Source: a virus. Taken from it: a DNA stretch of 52,547 nt. The notes beneath the pieces are model-generated. The model worked only from the letters and a program-made list of their open reading frames with translations. It had not been told where the DNA came from and ran no database searches. This document shows positions 13,267-47,239 of this stretch, piece by piece (position 1 is the stretch's first letter; each line of letters starts with the position of its first letter). The translations under genes were made by a program, and so were the position numbers. The DNA lies in the IMG/VR virus record IMGVR_UViG_3300021405_000017, positions 1 through 52,547 of that record; one strand, written 5' to 3'.

Positions 13267-13460
13267 CGTCGCTCGCCCTTCCCCGTCGCGGAATCGGCCC
13301 TTTCGCTTATGGCGGGAAGCCCCGCCGGGCGACGCGCCCCCGGGCGCGGTGTCTCACACTTCGCCCGAGCGGTCCGCGAAGACAAGAGGGCGCCGCGCAC
13401 AATTTGCGCTCCGTCCACGGGAATAGGCGCGGCCTGGTCCGATTCAATTCTCATCACCAC
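13263..13460 (-). CDS. possible small gene at array edge, 65 aa
   Basis: GTG start at 13460 has a GGAGG site 6 bp upstream, inside the edge of the pentanucleotide array, and its stop overlaps the next start by 4 bp (GTGA), as in the rest of this transcript. Composition is Arg/Ala/Pro-rich, with no recognisable domain. The signals favour a real gene, but the protein itself looks unremarkable and could be spurious. Confidence 0.4.
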   Translation of the reverse strand: MVMRIESDQAAPIPVDGAQIVRGALLSSRTARAKCETPRPGARRPAGLPAISERADSATGKGERR

Positions 13461-13977
13461 GCCGCGCCTCCTTCCGTCTCAGCCGGCCCAGCCCCGCCTC
13501 GCCTTGCCAGATCAAGCCTAGTCACACCGCGCCTGGTCCAGCCTCGCCGGCCCCGCAAGCCGCGCCATGCCAGGCCACGCCTTGCCTCGCCAGGCCTCAC
13601 CATTCCGGCCGCGCCGAGCCCGGCCTTGCCTAGCCACGCCACGCCGCGCCAGACCCCGCCGCGCCGGCCTTGCCTTGCCTCGCCGGGCCTAGTCGCGCCC
13701 GGCCGCACCGAGCCTGGCCGAGCCCGGCCGTGCCGCGCCCCGCCGAGCCCTGCCTGCCTCGCCCCACCTCGCCAGGTCCAGCCTTGCCAGGCCTTGCCCC
13801 ACGCCGCACCTGCCTTGCCCTGCCTCGCCAAGTCGCGCCCGGCCTCGCCGGACCCAGCCCAGCCTGGCCACGCCTGCCTTGCCACGCCCAGCCTCACCGG
13901 GGCCGGCCGCGCCTTGTCTAGCCTAGCCATGCCTGGTCCGGCCGCGCCGTGCCGCGCCTGCCTTGCCTCGCCTCGTC
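13458..13977. repeat. degenerate pentanucleotide array A1 (CCNNG on +, GGCNN on -)
   Basis: About 100 units of 5 bp. On the plus strand each is CC-N-N-G (e.g. CCTTG CCTTG CCTCG CCGGG CCTAG); on the minus strand GG recurs every 5 nt. It fills the gap between the stop codon of the 13978-14280 gene and the start of the 13460 ORF with no other spacer. Open frames across it are a by-product: only a TA dinucleotide in the variable position can make a stop. Confidence 0.9.
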
Positions 13978-14280
13978 TCATACGGGCGAATCGAGCCGTT
14001 TGAACTCGCCTCGCCGTAGCTCGATGGCCGGGACACTCCGGATCTCGCTGCGCCGCGCCTTGATGACGAATTCGCGCCATTCTCGCCGCTGCTCCCGCTC
14101 TAAGCCGCGTACTAGGTCAGCCTGATATTTCTCCGACAACGCGCGCTTCACCCAAGCGTCGAACGGCAGCCGAGCCGCAGCTGCCGCCTCCTCGAACGCC
14201 TGCATGATCGGCGAGGCAAGGCGAATGTGGAGCGTCTTGCCGCCCACCTCGTCGTCATTGTCATTGATGGGTTCGTTCAT
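13978..14280 (-). CDS. RHH-like / small regulatory protein between arrays, 100 aa
   Basis: ATG at 14280 with GGAGAGGG upstream. The longer reading to 14604 runs into the repeat array and is rejected. Residues 15-50 (KTLHIRLASPIMQAFEEAAA followed by ARLPFDAWVKRALSEKYQ) look like a ribbon-helix-helix or antitoxin-type DNA-binding fold, with a beta strand and two helices. The C-terminal half is basic (EREQRREWREFVIKARRSEI). It is the only gene lying between two pentanucleotide arrays, and its stop codon abuts array A1. A role in binding the arrays is an attractive guess only. Confidence 0.7.
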   Translation of the reverse strand: MNEPINDNDDEVGGKTLHIRLASPIMQAFEEAAAAARLPFDAWVKRALSEKYQADLVRGLEREQRREWREFVIKARRSEIRSVPAIELRRGEFKRLDSPV

Positions 14281-14301
14281 GACCCTCTCCTTTTCACTTT
14301 T

Positions 14302-15775
14302 GCCCGCCTTGCCTGCCTTGCCTTGCCGAGCCTTGTCGGACCCAGCCGGGACACGCCAAGCCTCGCCATGCAACGTCCCGCCGCGCCTGCCTTGCCATGT
14401 CGGGCCTAGCCGGGTCGGATCTTGCCGAACCCCGCCAAGCCTCGCCTCGCCCGGCCCGGTCAAGCCACGCCTGCCTTTGCCTTGCCATGCCTGGCCTTGC
14501 CCAGCCGCACCGTGCCGAACCCGGTCGGACCCGGCCAAGCCTGCCATGCCAGACCTCGCCTCGCCGCGCCTTGCCAAGCCTCGCCAAACCCGGCCATGTC
14601 GCATCCGGCCGCGCCTGCCTCGCCCCGCCTTGCCTCGCCGCGCCCTGCCCAGCCCGGCCAGGCCGAATCGTACCGGGTCTAGTCATGCCCCGCCGGCCTC
14701 GCCTTGCCCCGCCAGGCCCAGTCTCGGCTCGTCCTGCCTCGCCTAGTCCCGCCCAGTCGCGCCCGACCATGTCAGGCCGTGCCCGGTCCCGTCTTGCCGT
14801 GCCGCGCCTTGCCAGGCCTGCCTCGCCATGCCTCGCCAAGTCGCGCCTTGCCTCACCGCGTCTGGCCCGGCCTTGCCGCGCCAGGTCTCGCCGTGTCGCG
14901 CCTGCCTTGCCTTGCCTTGCCCGGCCCCGCCTCGCCGGGTCCCGCCATGCCTGCCTCGCCTCACCCCATCGTGCCGGGCCAAGGCGTGTCCCGACATGCC
15001 TCGGCATGCCAGGCCCGGCCCGGCCGGACCTCGCCTGCCTAGCCTCGCCCGGTCGCGCCGAGTCGAGCCTAGCCTCGCCGCGCCCCGCCGTACCGTGCCC
15101 GGCCGGGTCATGCCTGCCTCGCCCCGCCGCGCCAGCGCCATGCCAAGCCTTGCCGAGTCGCGCCTGGTCGTGCCTGGCCCGGCCAGGCCCAGCCTGGCCA
15201 TGCCTGCGTTGCCTTGCCTCATCAGGTCAGGCCATGCCTCGCCTCGCCCAGCCTCGCCTCGCCTCGCCTGTCTGGCCATGCTTCGCCTCGTCACATCATG
15301 CCGCGCCGGATCAAGCCTCGCCCGGTCCCGCCGTGCCGTGCCTGACCCCGCCTCATCAGGTCTGGCCATGCCTGCCTCGCCTCGCTGCGCCGGGGCTCGC
15401 CCGGCCAAGCCGGGTCGAGTCCCGCCTGGCCCCGCCTAGCCTGCCTTGCCGTGTCAGGCCTCGTCACGCCTCGCCGTGTCCGGCCCAGCCTAGTCTGGCC
15501 ATGCCTGCCGTGTCCGGCCCAAACCAAGCCTCGCCTTGCCGCGCCTTGCCTCGCCACGCCTGCCTTGCCCGGCCAGGCCAAGCCTTGTCACGTCGCACTG
15601 CATCCCGCCTCGCCTGCCTTGCCTGGCCTCGCCAGGTCTCGCCGCCCTTGTCCTGCCCAGCCTCGCCTGCCTTGTCAGGCCACGCCTAGCCGGACCGGGC
15701 CGGGCCTAGCCTTGCCTCGCCGCATCTGGCCCGGCTCTGTCATGCCAAGCCTGGCCTTGCCTGCCTTGCCGTGTC
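14302..15775. repeat. degenerate pentanucleotide array A2, about 1.47 kb
   Basis: The longest array, roughly 290 units of CCNNG (plus) / GGCNN (minus). It is interrupted about every 50-90 bp by a 4-bp unit in the phrase GCCTGCC(T/A)TGCC or GCCTGCCTCGCC, e.g. near 14387, 14614, 14816, 14900, 14949, 15111, 15370, 15560 and 15610. Many intervals look like 5n+4. It begins exactly at the stop codon of the 15774-16316 gene and ends at the ribosome site of the 14280 gene. Confidence 0.92.
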
Positions 15776-16316
15776 AGGCGGCGGTTCGTGAGCCGCCGCC
15801 CTTGCCTTTGCCGCCTTTGCCGCCGCCGGCCTTGCCCGCACCTTTGCTCGCAGCCTTGGCGGCGCGGGCTCGTTCGGCGATGGTTTCGAGGTTGAGCAAC
15901 ATGGTGTCCAAGTCTGGACCGACGCCCAGGACGAGGGCGACCTTTCGCGCCCGCTCTATAGCGGCGGCGATGCGGTCAACCTCGTCCTCGAGGACTCGCA
16001 GCGCCCGCGCGCGCTGACCTTTGAACGAGGTCAATTCGCAAGAGGTCTGCGTTTTCGGCGCTCGATCGGGATCGACAATGTAGTAGGGCACTACGATGGT
16101 TTCGGTCTCCGTGATGACCTCAAACCGGACGTAACGGATCAGGGTGCGGGCCTGCTCGATCCAATGCTGTTGCGCCGCCTTTTTTACGTCCCATTCGAAG
16201 TCTTCATGGATTGGAGAGCCGGGAGGCCGAGCCGCTTCGACCACCTTCTCAGGCTCAAGACGCCCGCTGGAGTCTTCCAGCGAGCGAATAAAGGCGGCCT
16301 TGGCCGCCGACATCAT
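15774..16316 (-). CDS. hypothetical phage protein, 180 aa
   Basis: ATG at 16316 overlaps the upstream stop (ATGA). The N-terminal half holds a pattern I associate with uncharacterised alphaproteobacterial phage proteins: RLEPEKVVEAARPPGSPIHE, then FEWDVKKAAQQHWIEQARTL. The middle is a long helix (RALRVLEDEVDRIAAAIERA). The C-terminal 30 residues are Lys/Gly-rich (GKAGGGKGGKGKGGGS), a flexible basic tail. The stop codon is formed at the boundary of array A2. It belongs to the recombination-module operon; a nucleic-acid-associated role is plausible. Confidence 0.75.
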   Translation of the reverse strand: MMSAAKAAFIRSLEDSSGRLEPEKVVEAARPPGSPIHEDFEWDVKKAAQQHWIEQARTLIRYVRFEVITETETIVVPYYIVDPDRAPKTQTSCELTSFKGQRARALRVLEDEVDRIAAAIERARKVALVLGVGPDLDTMLLNLETIAERARAAKAASKGAGKAGGGKGGKGKGGGSRTAA

Positions 16317-17197
16317 TGCGACAGCCCCACCTCGTCGCCGCCGCCATTGCTCTTAGGCGGGCGCTTGCCGTTTGCGGCTTTCGGCGTCTTGCCCTTTGAC
16401 GCCTTGCCGCCCTCGCGCTGAGAGCTAGCCTCGCGCCGGATGATCTCGCTCTCGTACCACACCCACAATTCTTCGCTGTCGATATCGCTCGCCTCCGGGT
16501 TATCGTAGGCCGCCTGTTGCACCTTACGGCCGCCGTTCTTGACGATATCGAGCCAGCGCGGGTCACGCGCATCGACGACCTCCCAGCCGCCGTTGTTGAA
16601 GGTGCCCTTCTCTGTTCGCCCGTCGCCGATGCCGGTCACATCGCCGGCGTTCGACATCAAGTTGACGATCGCCCGCTCGGTCGTCAGCGTCTTGATGAAT
16701 TGGACGGTGAGTTTCACCGCCCATGTTTTGAACATCGCGCGGGTTCGAATGTCGGGCACGCGCTTCATGCCCTCAAGGCGGACCCAATCCATGTAGAGGT
16801 AGGGCTTGCCATAGACGTGGACCGTCTGGTCGACCACCTGCACCAGACAGCCGATCTCAGTCTTCGTTGCACCTGGCGTGCGGAGCGCCGCGGAACCGAG
16901 CGCCTTTTTGAAAGCGCCGGTAGGGAAGTGAAAAAGCGTAGGCGCGCTATCGTCGCGGCACCGATACATTGTGTCGCGGAATTCAGCGAGCGGGTCATGT
17001 TTCAAAATGACCTGCTTCTCGGCGTTGTTTTTAGCGCGCGACGGAAGCAACAGCTGCTGCTTCGCTTTCGCGCTCGGCCGATTCATCACCAGGGGCGCCG
17101 TGCCCAGAAGATGGAAGACAACGTAGCCTCGCTCGAAGCGCTTAAGCTCCGAGACCATCTCGGTGGTGTCGCGTGTTTTACTGGGTTTGGTAGCCAT
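16313..17197 (-). CDS. hypothetical protein of the recombination module, 294 aa
   Basis: ATG at 17197 with a GGAGGAG ribosome site upstream. Residues 20-260 look like a mixed alpha/beta domain (YVVFHLLGTAPLVMNRPSAK, HDPLAEFRDTMYR, FPTGAFKKALGSAAL, and GDGRTEKGTFNNGGWEVV). The C-terminus is lysine-rich and low complexity. I recall similar proteins next to phage annealing proteins and exonucleases but cannot name the family. Position suggests help in ssDNA handling or recombination; this is inference. Confidence 0.72.
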   Translation of the reverse strand: MATKPSKTRDTTEMVSELKRFERGYVVFHLLGTAPLVMNRPSAKAKQQLLLPSRAKNNAEKQVILKHDPLAEFRDTMYRCRDDSAPTLFHFPTGAFKKALGSAALRTPGATKTEIGCLVQVVDQTVHVYGKPYLYMDWVRLEGMKRVPDIRTRAMFKTWAVKLTVQFIKTLTTERAIVNLMSNAGDVTGIGDGRTEKGTFNNGGWEVVDARDPRWLDIVKNGGRKVQQAAYDNPEASDIDSEELWVWYESEIIRREASSQREGGKASKGKTPKAANGKRPPKSNGGGDEVGLSQ

Positions 17198-17252
17198 TCT
17201 CGTCTATGCTCCTCCTTTCGGAAAACGGCCTATCCGCTTTCCGTCGTCGCTT

Positions 17253-17279
17253 GGCCCGGGCGTCGTGAGCGCCCGGGCC
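17253..17279. other. perfect 10-bp inverted repeat
   Basis: GGCCCGGGCG-TCGTGAG-CGCCCGGGCC. It lies between array A3 and the ribosome site of the 17197 gene. There is no clear T-run on the minus strand, so it may be a processing or pausing hairpin or an operator. Confidence 0.55.
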
Positions 17280-17297
17280 TTGCGTTTCGTTCGCGCT

Positions 17298-17937
17298 CAG
17301 CCTGCCGGCCGAGCCTTGCTTTGCCTCGCCATGCCGGGCCGTGCCACGCCGGGCCTGACCAGACCCAGCCCTGCCGAGCTGCGCCACGCCAAGTCGCGCC
17401 TGCCTCGCCCAGCCGGGCCGTGTCGGGCCTAGCCGCACCTCGCCCGGCCTCGCCAGGTCCGGCCGCGCCAAGCCTTGCCTGCGTCGCCGCGCCGTATCGC
17501 GCCGGACCGGGCCACGCCCCGCCAAGCCTCGGCCAGACAAGCCTCGCCAGGCCGCGCCTGCCTTGCCTCGCCATGCTGAGCCCAACCCCGCCAAGCCCCG
17601 CCGCGCCAGGTTCAGCCAGGTCCGGCCTCGCCTGCCTCGCCTTGCTCCGCCCCACCTCGCCGTGCCCCGTCACGCGTTGCCCGGTCGCGCCCAGCCGTGC
17701 CCCGTCTCGTCTAGCCATGCCTGCCTTGCCCCGCCGAGCCGGGTCTGGCCTTGCCCCGCCAAACCGCGCCACGCCAAGCCTGGCCTGACCCCGCCTGCGT
17801 CGCCTTGCCTCGCCTCGCCCGGCCAAGCCGCGCCCGGCCTCGCCATGTCGGGCTCAGCCCGGCCAGGCCTCGCCGGTCATGCCGCCCCTTATCGAGCCCA
17901 ACCCCGCCATGTCTGGCCAAACCGCGCCTGCCTTGCC
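17298..17937. repeat. degenerate pentanucleotide array A3, about 640 bp
   Basis: About 128 CCNNG (plus) / GGCNN (minus) units, same orientation as A1 and A2. It starts directly at the stop codon of the 17938-18966 gene and ends about 20 bp from the strong hairpin at 17253. The GCCTGCC(T)TGCC slip phrase recurs (e.g. near 17400 and 17560). Confidence 0.92.
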
Positions 17938-18966
17938 TCAAAGGAGGTTCTCCTCTGATTTGGCCGCAGAGGAGCGGCGAGGCGGTTCACCACCGTCCTC
18001 TGCGGCCGCATCCGGCGCGGGTGGTTGTGGCCCGGCGGGAGGGGGATTCTCCGCCGTTTGAGCCGCGCCGGAATCTAAGTTCGGGGATAGGTCAGTAGCG
18101 CCGGCTGCCCCGGCGAGCGCGTTCAGCTTCGAGGACAGGCCTTTCAGGGCAGGGCCTCGGTCGGCTTTCGGTTCTGGAAACAGCGTCTCGACTGTCGACT
18201 CGCCAGACTTGATCGCCTGCCGCATCGCGGTCAGCGTAATCAGATCGTCGAGGCCGACGTCCTCGATCCCCGGAACCTCAAGCGCGTTGAAGACGCGCTC
18301 GGGGGTAACGCCCCAGGCCGCGAAAGACCTGACCGCTACGTCCCGGCGCTCAGAGAGCGTCTTGACGTCGCCGGCGATCACCCGCTCGACCGACTGATAG
18401 GCTCGCCGCCAGATCGCCTTGGGCACGCCGCGCATGATCGCGTTGCGAAGCGCGATCGAACACGCGGCCTGGCCGGTCACCATGATTAAATCGTCGTCGT
18501 AAATCCGGCCATGCTTGTCGAAGATACGCCGGCGCACCCGTGACGTGGTGACGCGGCCCGTCTCCAAATCGTGGAAGACGCCCTCGGCCTCGACGAACTT
18601 TTCAATCCGATCGATGTGGATGACGCGGGAGGCGTCGCGGCAATTGCCCCATTGCGAGGCGACGATCTCGGCGAAACGTATGGACGGACCGCGAATCGCC
18701 TTTTTGCCGCGAGGCAGCGCATAGACGCATTCTTCCGCGGTCTCGTCGTCGAGCGTCGCCAGGCCCAGGATGTCGCTCATCACCTTCTTTTGCGATCGTG
18801 GATAGGCGTGCGCGGTATTGACCTGCTGATCGACCTCGGCGCGGCTGAGCGCGATCGCCAGGCTCATTTGGCTTTGCGCCGGACCGGCGTCGATCGTCGC
18901 CAGCGGGCCGAAGTCGTCCGTCTGTTCGAGATCCGTTTCGACGGGCTTAGCCATTGGCTTTTTCAT
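17938..18966 (-). CDS. candidate single-strand annealing recombinase (RecT/Bet-like role)
   Basis: 342 residues, ATG at 18966 (18954 possible), overlapping the exonuclease gene by 20 bp. The core at about 45-190 (VNTAHAYPRSQKKVMSDILG, EECVYALPRGKKAIRGPSIR, FAEIVASQWGNCR, TGQAACSIALRNAIMRGVPK) is a type I have seen beside YqaJ exonucleases in many phages. The C-terminal third is Ala/Pro-rich and low complexity. Exonuclease plus annealing protein would form the phage homologous-recombination pair. The pairing is strong; the biochemical activity is inferred. Confidence 0.7.
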   Translation of the reverse strand: MKKPMAKPVETDLEQTDDFGPLATIDAGPAQSQMSLAIALSRAEVDQQVNTAHAYPRSQKKVMSDILGLATLDDETAEECVYALPRGKKAIRGPSIRFAEIVASQWGNCRDASRVIHIDRIEKFVEAEGVFHDLETGRVTTSRVRRRIFDKHGRIYDDDLIMVTGQAACSIALRNAIMRGVPKAIWRRAYQSVERVIAGDVKTLSERRDVAVRSFAAWGVTPERVFNALEVPGIEDVGLDDLITLTAMRQAIKSGESTVETLFPEPKADRGPALKGLSSKLNALAGAAGATDLSPNLDSGAAQTAENPPPAGPQPPAPDAAAEDGGEPPRRSSAAKSEENLL

Positions 18967-20935: not shown

Positions 20936-21028
20936 TGCTTGCCGGTCCGGCCGCGCCACGTCCCGCCGCGCCATACCCAGCCGGATCAGACCGAGCCTCG
21001 CCGCGCCTCGCCGGCCTTACCTCGCCAT
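20936..21028. repeat. short pentanucleotide array A4
   Basis: About 18 units of the same CCNNG (plus) pattern, more degenerate than A1-A3. It fills the gap between the stop of the 21035-21385 gene and the ribosome site of the 20919 gene. Confidence 0.7.
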
Positions 21029-21034
21029 AGTTCT

Positions 21035-21385
21035 TCATGACCAAACGATGCGCTCGAACAGCACCGCCGGGCCGGCAATCCAGGGCAACGTTTCCGCGAT
21101 CTTGACGTTCTGGTAGAGCAGCGCGTTGCGCCGGTAGATGATGGTAGCGGCCTCGTTACGCGGCAGGCCCCTGTCATGGCCCATCTCGTCGACGAACATG
21201 TCCGCCCTCTTGAAGGCGAGGCCGCCATTGAAGTCAGCGAGCACACTGACGTGCTCGCAGTGCTCGCAGCCGATCAGGAGCTGCATCAGCCCGTTGATCT
21301 CGCGATAGGCCGGCCGCTCCGGCAGTTCGAACGTCCGCGTCTCGCTCGACTCGTCGGGCTTTAGGACGAGAAGCTTAGTTTCCAT
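21035..21385 (-). CDS. DUF3846-like phage protein, 116 aa
   Basis: ATG at 21385; the extension to 21490 is a shadow of the neighbour. The layout (a short beta N-terminus, YREINGLMQLLIGCEHCEHV, then FVDEMGHDRGLPRNEAATII and IAGPAVLFE) recalls DUF3846 proteins, whose sequences carry a similar D-E-x-G...LPxNxxA pattern. Function of that family is unknown. The call is by motif memory. Confidence 0.6.
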   Translation of the reverse strand: METKLLVLKPDESSETRTFELPERPAYREINGLMQLLIGCEHCEHVSVLADFNGGLAFKRADMFVDEMGHDRGLPRNEAATIIYRRNALLYQNVKIAETLPWIAGPAVLFERIVWS

Positions 21386-21575
21386 CGGCGGGCGCCTCTT
21401 GCTCAATGATGTCGAAGCGCTCGAACAGTTCGACCGCGACGTCCTGCACGTCGATGACCAGCGGTCCTGAGCCGCCGGATGGGACGACAAACGTGTTGCC
21501 CTCGCGCTCGCCGCCGTCGCCGAGGGCCTCGAAGATCGCGTCCATGAGGGCCTTCATGCTTGCCGGCTGTTTCAT
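21375..21575 (-). CDS. hypothetical protein, 66 aa
   Basis: ATG at 21575 overlaps the upstream stop (ATGA). Short helical start (MKALMDAIFEALGDG), then NTFVVPSGGSGPLVIDVQDV. Its 3' end overlaps the next start by 11 bp. Not recognised. Confidence 0.6.
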   Translation of the reverse strand: MKQPASMKALMDAIFEALGDGGEREGNTFVVPSGGSGPLVIDVQDVAVELFERFDIIEQEAPADGN

Positions 21576-45861: not shown

Positions 45862-45897
45862 AGGTCGGCGGCGGCCCGCGCTAAACGGACCGCCGCC

Positions 45898-45985
45898 CCT
45901 TGCCTTGCCCAGCCCTGCCGCGCCTGGCCCCACCGGACCGGGCCGAGCCGTGCCTTACCACGCAACGCCAAGCTTGCTTGGCGCG
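45898..45985. repeat. short pentanucleotide array A5 plus hairpin
   Basis: About 13-14 CCNNG units (CCTTG CCTTG CCCAG CCCTG CCGCG CCTGG ...) on the plus strand, the same orientation as A1-A4 although the flanking genes here run rightward. It ends in a perfect 7-bp palindrome GCCAAGC-TT-GCTTGGC at 45967-45982. Confidence 0.72.
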
Positions 45986-46034
45986 CCCTTAACCTAGTTC
46001 GATCAGCCATCTTAGCTCAAGCCAAGAGTCCCGA

Positions 46035-46385
46035 ATGCTACCGGCGACGTACAATCTCGATCTGTATAGAGGCGACACGCTAAGGTTACAGGTAAAGTTG
46101 TGGAACAACGAGGAGCGTGATGATCCGGCCGATTTGGATGGCGTGATCGCAGCGAGCCAGTTTCGTGTACGGCCCGACGCTGAGCCGATGGTCGAGATGG
46201 CGTGCGCGATAACTTTGCCGAACGTCGTCGATCTAACCCTCAGTTCAGACGCGAGCCGGATGTTACCAAAAAAGGGCGTGTGGGATCTGGAATTGCGTTT
46301 CCCAGGCGGGGACGTATTTACACCGCTAGCCGGGAAAATGACGCTGAAACCTGACGTAACGCTACCGCCAGGCGCCGCGCCCTGA
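46035..46385 (+). CDS. BppU-like fibre base protein, 116 aa
   Basis: ATG at 46035. Beta-rich: [71 protein letters not shown]. This matches the short N-terminal domain of baseplate/receptor-binding assemblies and parallels the 767-1174 gene. It touches the collagen-like gene (TGATG) and lies between TerL and head genes, an unusual place. Confidence 0.62.
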
Positions 46386-47239
46386 TGGACGCGCGCGCTG
46401 ACCGGCCCGCCATCCTCGCCGTCGACATCGTCGAGCATCGCGTCGACCTGGCGATCTCGATCGGCCCCGCCGGCCCGCCGGGCGCGCAGGGGCCGCCAGG
46501 GGCAGACGGAATCGACGGCGCGCTAGGTCCGCCGGGGCCTCAGGGCGATCCCGGCCCACAGGGCGGCGCTGGGCCGCCAGGCCAGGATGGCGCGATCGGC
46601 CCCCAAGGGCCGCAAGGCCTTCAGGGCGATCAAGGCCCGATCGGCCCGATCGGTGCGACCGGCCCGCAGGGCGATCCGGGGCCGGCGGGCGGACAAGGGC
46701 CGCAAGGCGGGGTCGGTCCACAAGGGCCGCCAGGTCAGGACGGCGCGCAGGGGCCGGCGGGTGGACAAGGACCGCCGGGCGCGAACGGAGCGGACGGCGT
46801 TGACGGCGCGATCGGCCCGCCTGGCCCTGGCGTGGCGACCGGCGGCGCGGTCGGCGATGTCCTGGTTAAGACGGGCGCGCCCGATTTCGCGACTGGCTGG
46901 CAGGCGCAAATCGGGCCGTGGCAAACGCCGGGTGTCGTTGGCGGCACCGATAGCGGCGTGGAATATCGCATGGAGCCTGGCCGCGTCGTGCGGCTGCGCG
47001 GCGTCTTCATTCCCATAAACGGTGATGATGGCAGCGCCCGCCTTACCGGGATGCCGCCGGGCACATCGGCGCAGGAATTTGTCAGCGCAGCGGGCTTCAA
47101 TATCGCCAACAGCACGCCGACCGCCTGGATGATCATTGTCCAACAAGACGGTCAGCTCTTGTTCTACCGCATCGTCCCGGCGCCGGACGGCAGCGGCGGG
47201 CGCGTCGGCCTGGAAGGCGTGACCTACACCACGACATGA
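46385..47239 (+). CDS. collagen-like fibre protein, 284 aa
   Basis: ATG at 46385, 1-bp overlap. After 25 residues, Gly-X-Y repeats run to about residue 145 ([19 protein letters not shown] and so on). The C-terminal domain ([44 protein letters not shown]-like [12 protein letters not shown]) is a compact beta domain. Probably a trimeric spike. It overlaps the following capsid-fibre fusion gene by 4 bp (ATGA). Confidence 0.85.

What the first reader, a model, noticed from the sequence alone, without database searches (positions are those of the whole stretch)
13458..17937. Long degenerate GGCNN/CCNNG pentanucleotide arrays in phage intergenic gaps
Three arrays (about 520, 1470 and 640 bp), plus two short ones (20936-21028, 45898-45965), total about 2.8 kb. 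Two of five positions vary freely while CC..G is kept over hundreds of units, so this is not a simple decayed microsatellite: selection or a copying process holds a fixed sparse pattern. I know of no named phage element like this. On the minus strand GG recurs every 5 nt (G2N3)n, which would allow many two-tetrad G-quadruplexes, and a 5-bp period is half a helical turn, so every second unit faces the same side of the DNA.
Basis: partly seen in the sequence, partly recalled or inferred. Interest (0 to 1): 0.9.

Follow-up and report, generated by a model that had tools for sequence, protein, structure and literature searches.

The report
Phage VIPR guide-RNA arrays beside Vipr
The odd five-letter repeats in this phage are almost certainly a large bank of guide RNAs for a protein related to CRISPR proteins that sits between them, a recently described system (VIPR) with which phages recognise and silence the DNA of rival phages.

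Summary
Three long arrays and two short ones of GCCNN (plus strand; GGCNN on the strand of the flanking genes) occur where stated, far above shuffled sequence. They are neither microsatellites nor G-quadruplex DNA elements. Between two arrays lies a 294-aa gene (16313-17197, minus; phrog_4652). Its family matches PDB 36pp 'SUSP1 Vipr protein' (E=8.7e-40) and is predicted to fold like the CRISPR RAMP proteins Csm3/Cas7. A Vipr homologue occurs in 88 of 120 virus loci found only by the repeat pattern, against 1 of 325 other virus loci. This is the VIPR system of a 2026 preprint (PMC13142463): vrRNAs of GGY/NN repeats whose NN pairs read DNA with a one-base skip. The window carries about 33 guide-length blocks, separated by 4-nt units with the handle GAGGCAAGGCAGGC, and a conserved partner gene (vap-like). 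New here: the window's NN pairs have the composition of codon positions 1-2 in sense orientation, as expected if guides read coding sequence with the wobble base skipped. No concrete target was found. So this is a new member of a known, very recent kind, with an unusually large guide bank. Function in this phage is inferred, not tested.

The parts
17300..17940 (-). vrRNA-type array A3 (GGCNN on the minus strand), 130 units in 8 guide-length blocks; starts right after the stop codon of the upstream gene 17938-18966
17253..17279 (-). GC-rich inverted repeat (GGCCCGGGCG...CGCCCGGGCC) in the leader between array A3 and the vipr start; possible terminator or processing hairpin (inferred)
   Evidence: sequence; fold
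16313..17197 (-). vipr gene: 294-aa RAMP (Cas7/Csm3-like) protein, phrog_4652
15774..16316 (-). vap-like partner gene (180 aa, phrog_15946); overlaps the vipr stop codon by 4 nt; relatives occur in about 35 of the VIPR loci collected here
14300..15780 (-). vrRNA-type array A2, 299 units, 22 four-nt boundary units, 18 blocks of 7 or more repeats; follows the vap-like stop codon directly
13978..14280 (-). 100-aa gene of unknown function between arrays A2 and A1; no family match and no relative in other VIPR loci (probably not part of the system)
13478..13978 (-). vrRNA-type array A1, 100 units, 7 blocks; follows the stop codon of gene 13978-14280
20945..21028 (-). short array, one guide-length block (13 repeats), directly after the stop codon of minus-strand ORF 21035-21490
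45892..45966 (-). short array, one guide-length block (15 repeats), next to minus-strand ORF 45989-46438 in the late region

Best explanation
The arrays are guide-RNA genes (vrRNAs) of a phage-borne VIPR system. They are transcribed with the early genes as GGY-NN repeats. The RAMP protein Vipr (16313-17197) binds the RNA through the fixed GGC (or GAC) triplets and presents the two variable bases of each repeat. Those bases pair with double-stranded DNA, one target base being skipped between pairs, so that NN-x-NN-x reads codon positions 1 and 2 and ignores the wobble base. The bound complex blocks transcription of genes of competing phages. Each block of about 12-17 repeats between 4-nt units (handle GAGGCAAGGCAGGC) is one guide, about 33 in the three arrays plus two single ones. 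Shown here: anatomy, strand and position, linkage to the Vipr family, RAMP fold, codon-register signal. Known from the preprint for other members: RNA expression, RNP formation, the skip rule, repression. Inferred for this phage: expression, guide boundaries, targets, effect.
For: 1) 88 of 120 virus loci found purely by the repeat pattern carry a homologue of window P0001, against 1 of 325 other virus loci (Fisher p=2e-64), and that one (L307) has its own array; 1 of 293 genomes of one alphaproteobacterial order has it. 2) Among 50,697 phage records, the array DNA query finds 31 records and the Vipr protein query finds 33 with the same organism make-up (27 Mycobacterium, 1 cyanophage, 3 against 5 Gordonia): the protein query adds only two Gordonia phages. 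3) The family matches PDB 36pp 'SUSP1 Vipr protein', E=8.7e-40. The AlphaFold2 model (pLDDT 89) has Csm3/Cas7-type RAMPs as best PDB folds, E=5e-5, with a glycine-rich loop conserved. 4) The repeat (GGC/NN on the sense strand) and block length agree with published vrRNAs, 9-16 YNNGG repeats. 5) Arrays lie on the sense strand: upstream gene on the same strand in 83 of 91 cases with a crude gene caller. 6) NN pairs of the window (n=343) are best described by codon positions 1-2, sense, by 16 lnL units over the next model and 64 over the reverse complement; best in 977 of 1000 bootstraps and in each of the three arrays, though in A1 alone only by 0.5. 7) A guide-like run of 9 NN pairs is kept between diverged F1 phages but at a shifted place in the array.
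Against: No target was found for any window guide: 5 seed scans of virus contigs, 2 guides in about 790 alphaproteobacterial genomes, and all 29 longer guides against 10 million local positions gave nothing beyond shuffled guides. The conserved 3' tail after each published SUSP1 vrRNA is not seen after each block here; only the short GAGGCAAGGCAGGC handle is, and the paper's supplement on other array types could not be read. The vap gene here could not be matched to the paper's vap1-6. The codon-register signal is compositional and rests on the window's own genes as reference. The source paper is a preprint.
Confidence: 0.93

Rival explanations
1. A DNA or RNA structural element: the G-rich sense strand forms two-tetrad G-quadruplexes or R-loops in early transcripts (for example a transcription-dependent replication origin).
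For: G-rich on the non-template strand, fixed orientation relative to transcription, arrays begin right after stop codons in early/recombination gene regions.
Against: Homologous loci L047 and L063 use GACNN on the sense strand, with no GG, yet keep the same protein. It does not explain linkage to a RAMP protein or NN composition equal to codon positions 1-2.
Confidence: 0.03
2. A decayed microsatellite: slippage of a 5-bp unit with later point mutation, and no function.
For: F1 mycobacteriophages do gain and lose whole 5-nt units and whole blocks while flanks differ by 0-1 bases in 1,730.
Against: Point decay would hit all five positions alike; here three are kept and two approach equal use. 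Long arrays found in cellular genome contigs are mostly low-entropy simple repeats (0-2.1 bits), whereas virus arrays have 2.4-3.8 bits, and the higher-entropy cellular cases (L183, L185) have a Vipr-family match beside or in them. Linkage to Vipr is unexplained.
Confidence: 0.01
3. The arrays bind Vipr but serve as a decoy or regulatory sponge (for example against host CRISPR or another phage's VIPR) rather than as targeting guides.
For: No targets found here; the preprint reports layered conflicts among VIPR elements.
Against: A decoy needs no diverse NN pairs with codon-like composition.
Confidence: 0.03

Closest known systems
VIPR (Viral Interference Programmable Repeat) systems, SUSP1 and P. 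fulva type II (PMC13142463, PDB 36pp)
   Same: Phage-borne RAMP protein of the same family, adjacent noncoding GGY/NN tandem repeats with hypervariable NN, minimal locus with one partner gene, blocks of guide length.
   Different: About 33 blocks in long continuous arrays instead of four vrRNAs; blocks separated by a 4-nt AGGC unit and a short handle instead of a structured 3' tail; partner gene is phrog_15946, type not assigned; targets unknown.
VIPR loci in cluster F1 mycobacteriophages (Cheoctovirus: BobaPhett, Quico, Donkeykong), Gordonia Jujuvirus, Cyanophage Cy-LDV1 (identified here)
   Same: Same repeat, same GCCT boundary unit, same vipr and the same partner-gene family; array downstream of Cro and the antirepressor in the early operon in the F1 phages.
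   Different: One array of 38-69 units and 3-6 boundary units in F1 phages, against 529 units in the window; genes annotated only as hypothetical.
Class 1 CRISPR-Cas (type III Csm3/Cas7)
   Same: RAMP fold and glycine-rich loop; RNA-guided principle.
   Different: No CRISPR repeats and spacers, no other cas genes; noncontiguous code in place of a contiguous spacer.

Membership tests
VIPR | Vipr-family RAMP protein encoded in the locus | tested here: met
   Profile of 63 relatives including window P0001 hits PDB 36pp SUSP1 Vipr, E=8.7e-40; P0001 alone E=0.002; all 63 are phrog_4652
VIPR | RAMP fold with glycine-rich loop | tested here: met
   AF2 pLDDT 89, pTM 0.81; best PDB folds Csm3/Cas7; G185, G189, R194, G203 invariant or nearly so
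VIPR | vrRNA of GGY/NN repeats with hypervariable NN, beside vipr, noncoding | tested here: met
   arrays flank the gene on both sides
VIPR | Encoded by a virus or provirus | tested here: met
   IMG/VR record; terminase, tail fibres, integrase
VIPR | vap accessory gene next to vipr | tested here: inconclusive
   P0003 family is a conserved neighbour in about 35 loci, but its identity with vap1-6 could not be checked (supplement not readable)
VIPR | Target recognition by NN pairs with a one-base skip | tested here: inconclusive
   Codon positions 1-2 composition fits; no actual target found
VIPR | Invariable structured 3' tail after the repeat tract (SUSP1 clade) | tested here: inconclusive
   Only a 14-nt handle GAGGCAAGGCAGGC at block ends; the paper mentions other array architectures without such detail in the main text
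VIPR | vrRNA expression and co-purification with Vipr; DNA binding and repression | not testable with these tools
   Needs bench work
CRISPR-Cas class 1 | CRISPR repeat-spacer array and several cas genes | tested here: not met
   No identical repeats with spacers; only a single RAMP and one partner gene between the arrays
Simple microsatellite | Near-identical tandem units, all positions decaying alike | tested here: not met
   NN entropy 3.3-3.7 bits against a fixed triplet
Known Rfam RNA (for example hammerhead-interspersed array) | Match at gathering score | tested here: not met
   No match in the window, L063, L105, L047, L078 or L001

The most novel reading that the evidence does not exclude
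This phage holds one of the largest natural vrRNA banks yet seen (about 33 guides in 2.6 kb). It is built by slippage and block duplication and kept almost entirely in the same sense as its coding targets, so that VIPR here works as a CRISPR-like accumulated memory of rivals without any adaptation genes, in an array type whose guides share a 14-nt handle and no separate tail.
Probability: 0.35. Interest if true: 0.75.

Novelty: new member of a known kind. Interest (0 to 1): 0.6.

Why it matters
VIPR is proposed as a forerunner of CRISPR and was described only in 2026. This locus, and the roughly 90 related ones collected here, show a form with very long guide banks. They include F1 mycobacteriophages and Gordonia phages whose genes are listed as hypothetical and which grow on M. 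smegmatis and G. terrae, easy laboratory hosts. How guides are gained without adaptation genes becomes testable, because F1 phages with nearly identical flanks already differ in array units.

Tried and rejected
G-quadruplex/R-loop origin, pause-site and primase-site arrays and Rho sites were considered and dropped once GACNN arrays with the same protein appeared. Hypermutation of NN in F1 phages was suspected from the alignment but is explained by unit and block gain/loss plus mosaic ancestry. A local all-against-all search for targets with 0-3 skip bases gave no excess. Virus-contig scans with 7-9-unit seeds of window guides gave 0, 1, 1, 120+ and 120+ hits, none extending beyond chance. The same for an F1 guide gave 83 hits, several in a terminase gene of high-GC phages, one of which has its own VIPR; suggestive only. 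Genome searches for two long guides with up to 3 mismatches found nothing in 397 and 391 genomes. The search for related loci with P0001 found no near relative in virus contigs. Array DNA found nothing in plasmids, though Vipr relatives exist on plasmids of Sulfitobacter, Paracoccus, Rhodoplanes and Azospirillum.

Full report
OBSERVATION. The window is a 52,547-base virus record. The arrays exist at the stated places. Lag-5 identity is 0.55-0.58 against 0.33-0.35 in shuffles. In the GCCNN orientation all 155 pattern hits are on one strand. Parsing into units gives 100, 299 and 130 units in A1, A2 and A3. Nearly all are 5 nt, with 9, 22 and 10 four-nt units. Across phages 159 of 178 four-nt units read GCCT. 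In the sense orientation the block ends share the handle GAGGCAAGGCAGGC in the window.

RELATIVES. A plain DNA search found the same arrays in isolate phages: cluster F1 mycobacteriophages (Cheoctovirus), Gordonia Jujuvirus phages and Cyanophage Cy-LDV1. In F1 phages the array lies in the early operon downstream of Cro and the antirepressor. Che8 lacks it together with two neighbouring genes. In these, NN entropy is 2.4-3.8 bits in the arrays of 100 nt or more. Long arrays in cellular genome contigs are mostly simple repeats of 0-2.1 bits; of the cellular loci, L172, L183 and L185 have a Vipr-family match at the repeat. Arrays are GC-rich even where the flanking sequence has 37-44% GC, lie on the sense strand, and commonly start within about 20 nt of the upstream stop codon.

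THE PROTEIN. A window gene between A2 and A3, P0001, has homologues beside the arrays: 88 of 120 scan loci, against 1 of 325 unrelated virus loci. That one locus, L307, has an array too. In the phage collection the array query finds 31 records and the protein query 33, with the same organism make-up except for two further Gordonia phages. The family is phrog_4652, unknown function. It matches PDB 36pp, SUSP1 Vipr protein, at 8.7e-40. The AF2 model of P0001 (pLDDT 89) has type III CRISPR Csm3/Cas7 subunits as its best PDB matches. The next gene, P0003, belongs to a family found in about 35 of the loci, including all F1 phages that carry the array, and is the likely vap.

WHAT IT IS. The preprint PMC13142463 describes VIPR: Vipr, an ancestral RAMP, and vrRNAs of 9-16 YNNGG repeats. 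In these the NN pairs recognise double-stranded DNA with one target base skipped between pairs, the skipped base usually being the codon wobble position. Natural targets are competing phages and satellites. The complex represses transcription, and a reprogrammed system protected against lambda. The window locus fits in protein, repeat, block length, strand and presence of a partner gene.

A TEST OF MECHANISM HERE. If guides copy coding sequence with the wobble base left out, their NN pairs should look like codon positions 1-2. With handle units removed, the 343 NN pairs of the window are best described by codon positions 1-2 of the window's own genes, sense. The margin is 16 log-likelihood units over genomic dinucleotides and 64 over the reverse complement. 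It is best in 977 of 1000 bootstraps and in each of the three arrays, clearly in A2 and A3, narrowly in A1 (first seen). In other phages the best fit is a mixture of both strands. This supports the skip rule for this member and suggests that its guides are mostly in the same sense as their targets. It is compositional and does not name targets.

TARGET SEARCH. None found for the window. For F1 phages, a run kept between diverged members matches a terminase gene in high-GC virus contigs at nine consecutive NN pairs; chance is not excluded.

EVOLUTION. F1 phages whose flanks differ by 0-1 bases in 1,730 differ in the array by whole 5-nt units; ByChance lacks exactly one 59-nt block; Donkeykong and Brocalys differ by a 113-nt stretch. 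Arrays therefore change by slippage and block exchange, while GCC and the handle are kept.

VERDICT. A VIPR guide bank, new member of a known and very recent kind, with an unusually large number of guides. Shown: anatomy, linkage, fold, codon-like NN. Inferred: expression, boundaries, targets, repression.

Noticed in passing
L063:7899-8445: GTCNN arrays of ~103-118 nt separated by identical ~35-nt spacers (CAGGAAAAACAGCCTCCTTGTCTGAGTGATAAACAC), with a diverged Vipr homologue next to them; may be a VIPR type with separate tails.
   Followed up: partly
L105:468-955: Array blocks separated by GAGGTA instead of the GCCT unit, beside a Vipr-family match.
   Followed up: no
L280, L302, L303, L307, L315, L347 (terminase-like ORFs): A guide run kept between diverged F1 mycobacteriophages matches nine consecutive NN pairs, with one-base skips at wobble positions, in a terminase-like gene of high-GC phages; L307 itself carries a VIPR locus. 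Not beyond chance on present evidence.
   Followed up: partly
L001:3053-3217; L262:2714-3100: Array DNA is annotated as protein-coding genes in mycobacteriophages (BobaPhett gp51, Donkeykong gp48); in Philus and others the vipr gene start is annotated inside the array.
   Followed up: no
window:5457-8862: Minus-strand cluster with ParB-like protein, phosphoadenosine-phosphosulfate reductase-like protein and a DNA-methyltransferase-like protein; could be a DNA-modification module.
   Followed up: no
L361 (G191:C8:64299-65090): A Vipr homologue (41% identity) in a bacterial genome of the order of L168 with one in-frame TGA and no GYCNN array nearby; perhaps a decayed or differently built system.
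   Followed up: no
Gordonia phages ODay MW534375 and Ecliptus OP820472, about 10.4-11.0 kb: Vipr homologues (gene 19) in records that the array DNA query did not find; array form unknown.
   Followed up: no
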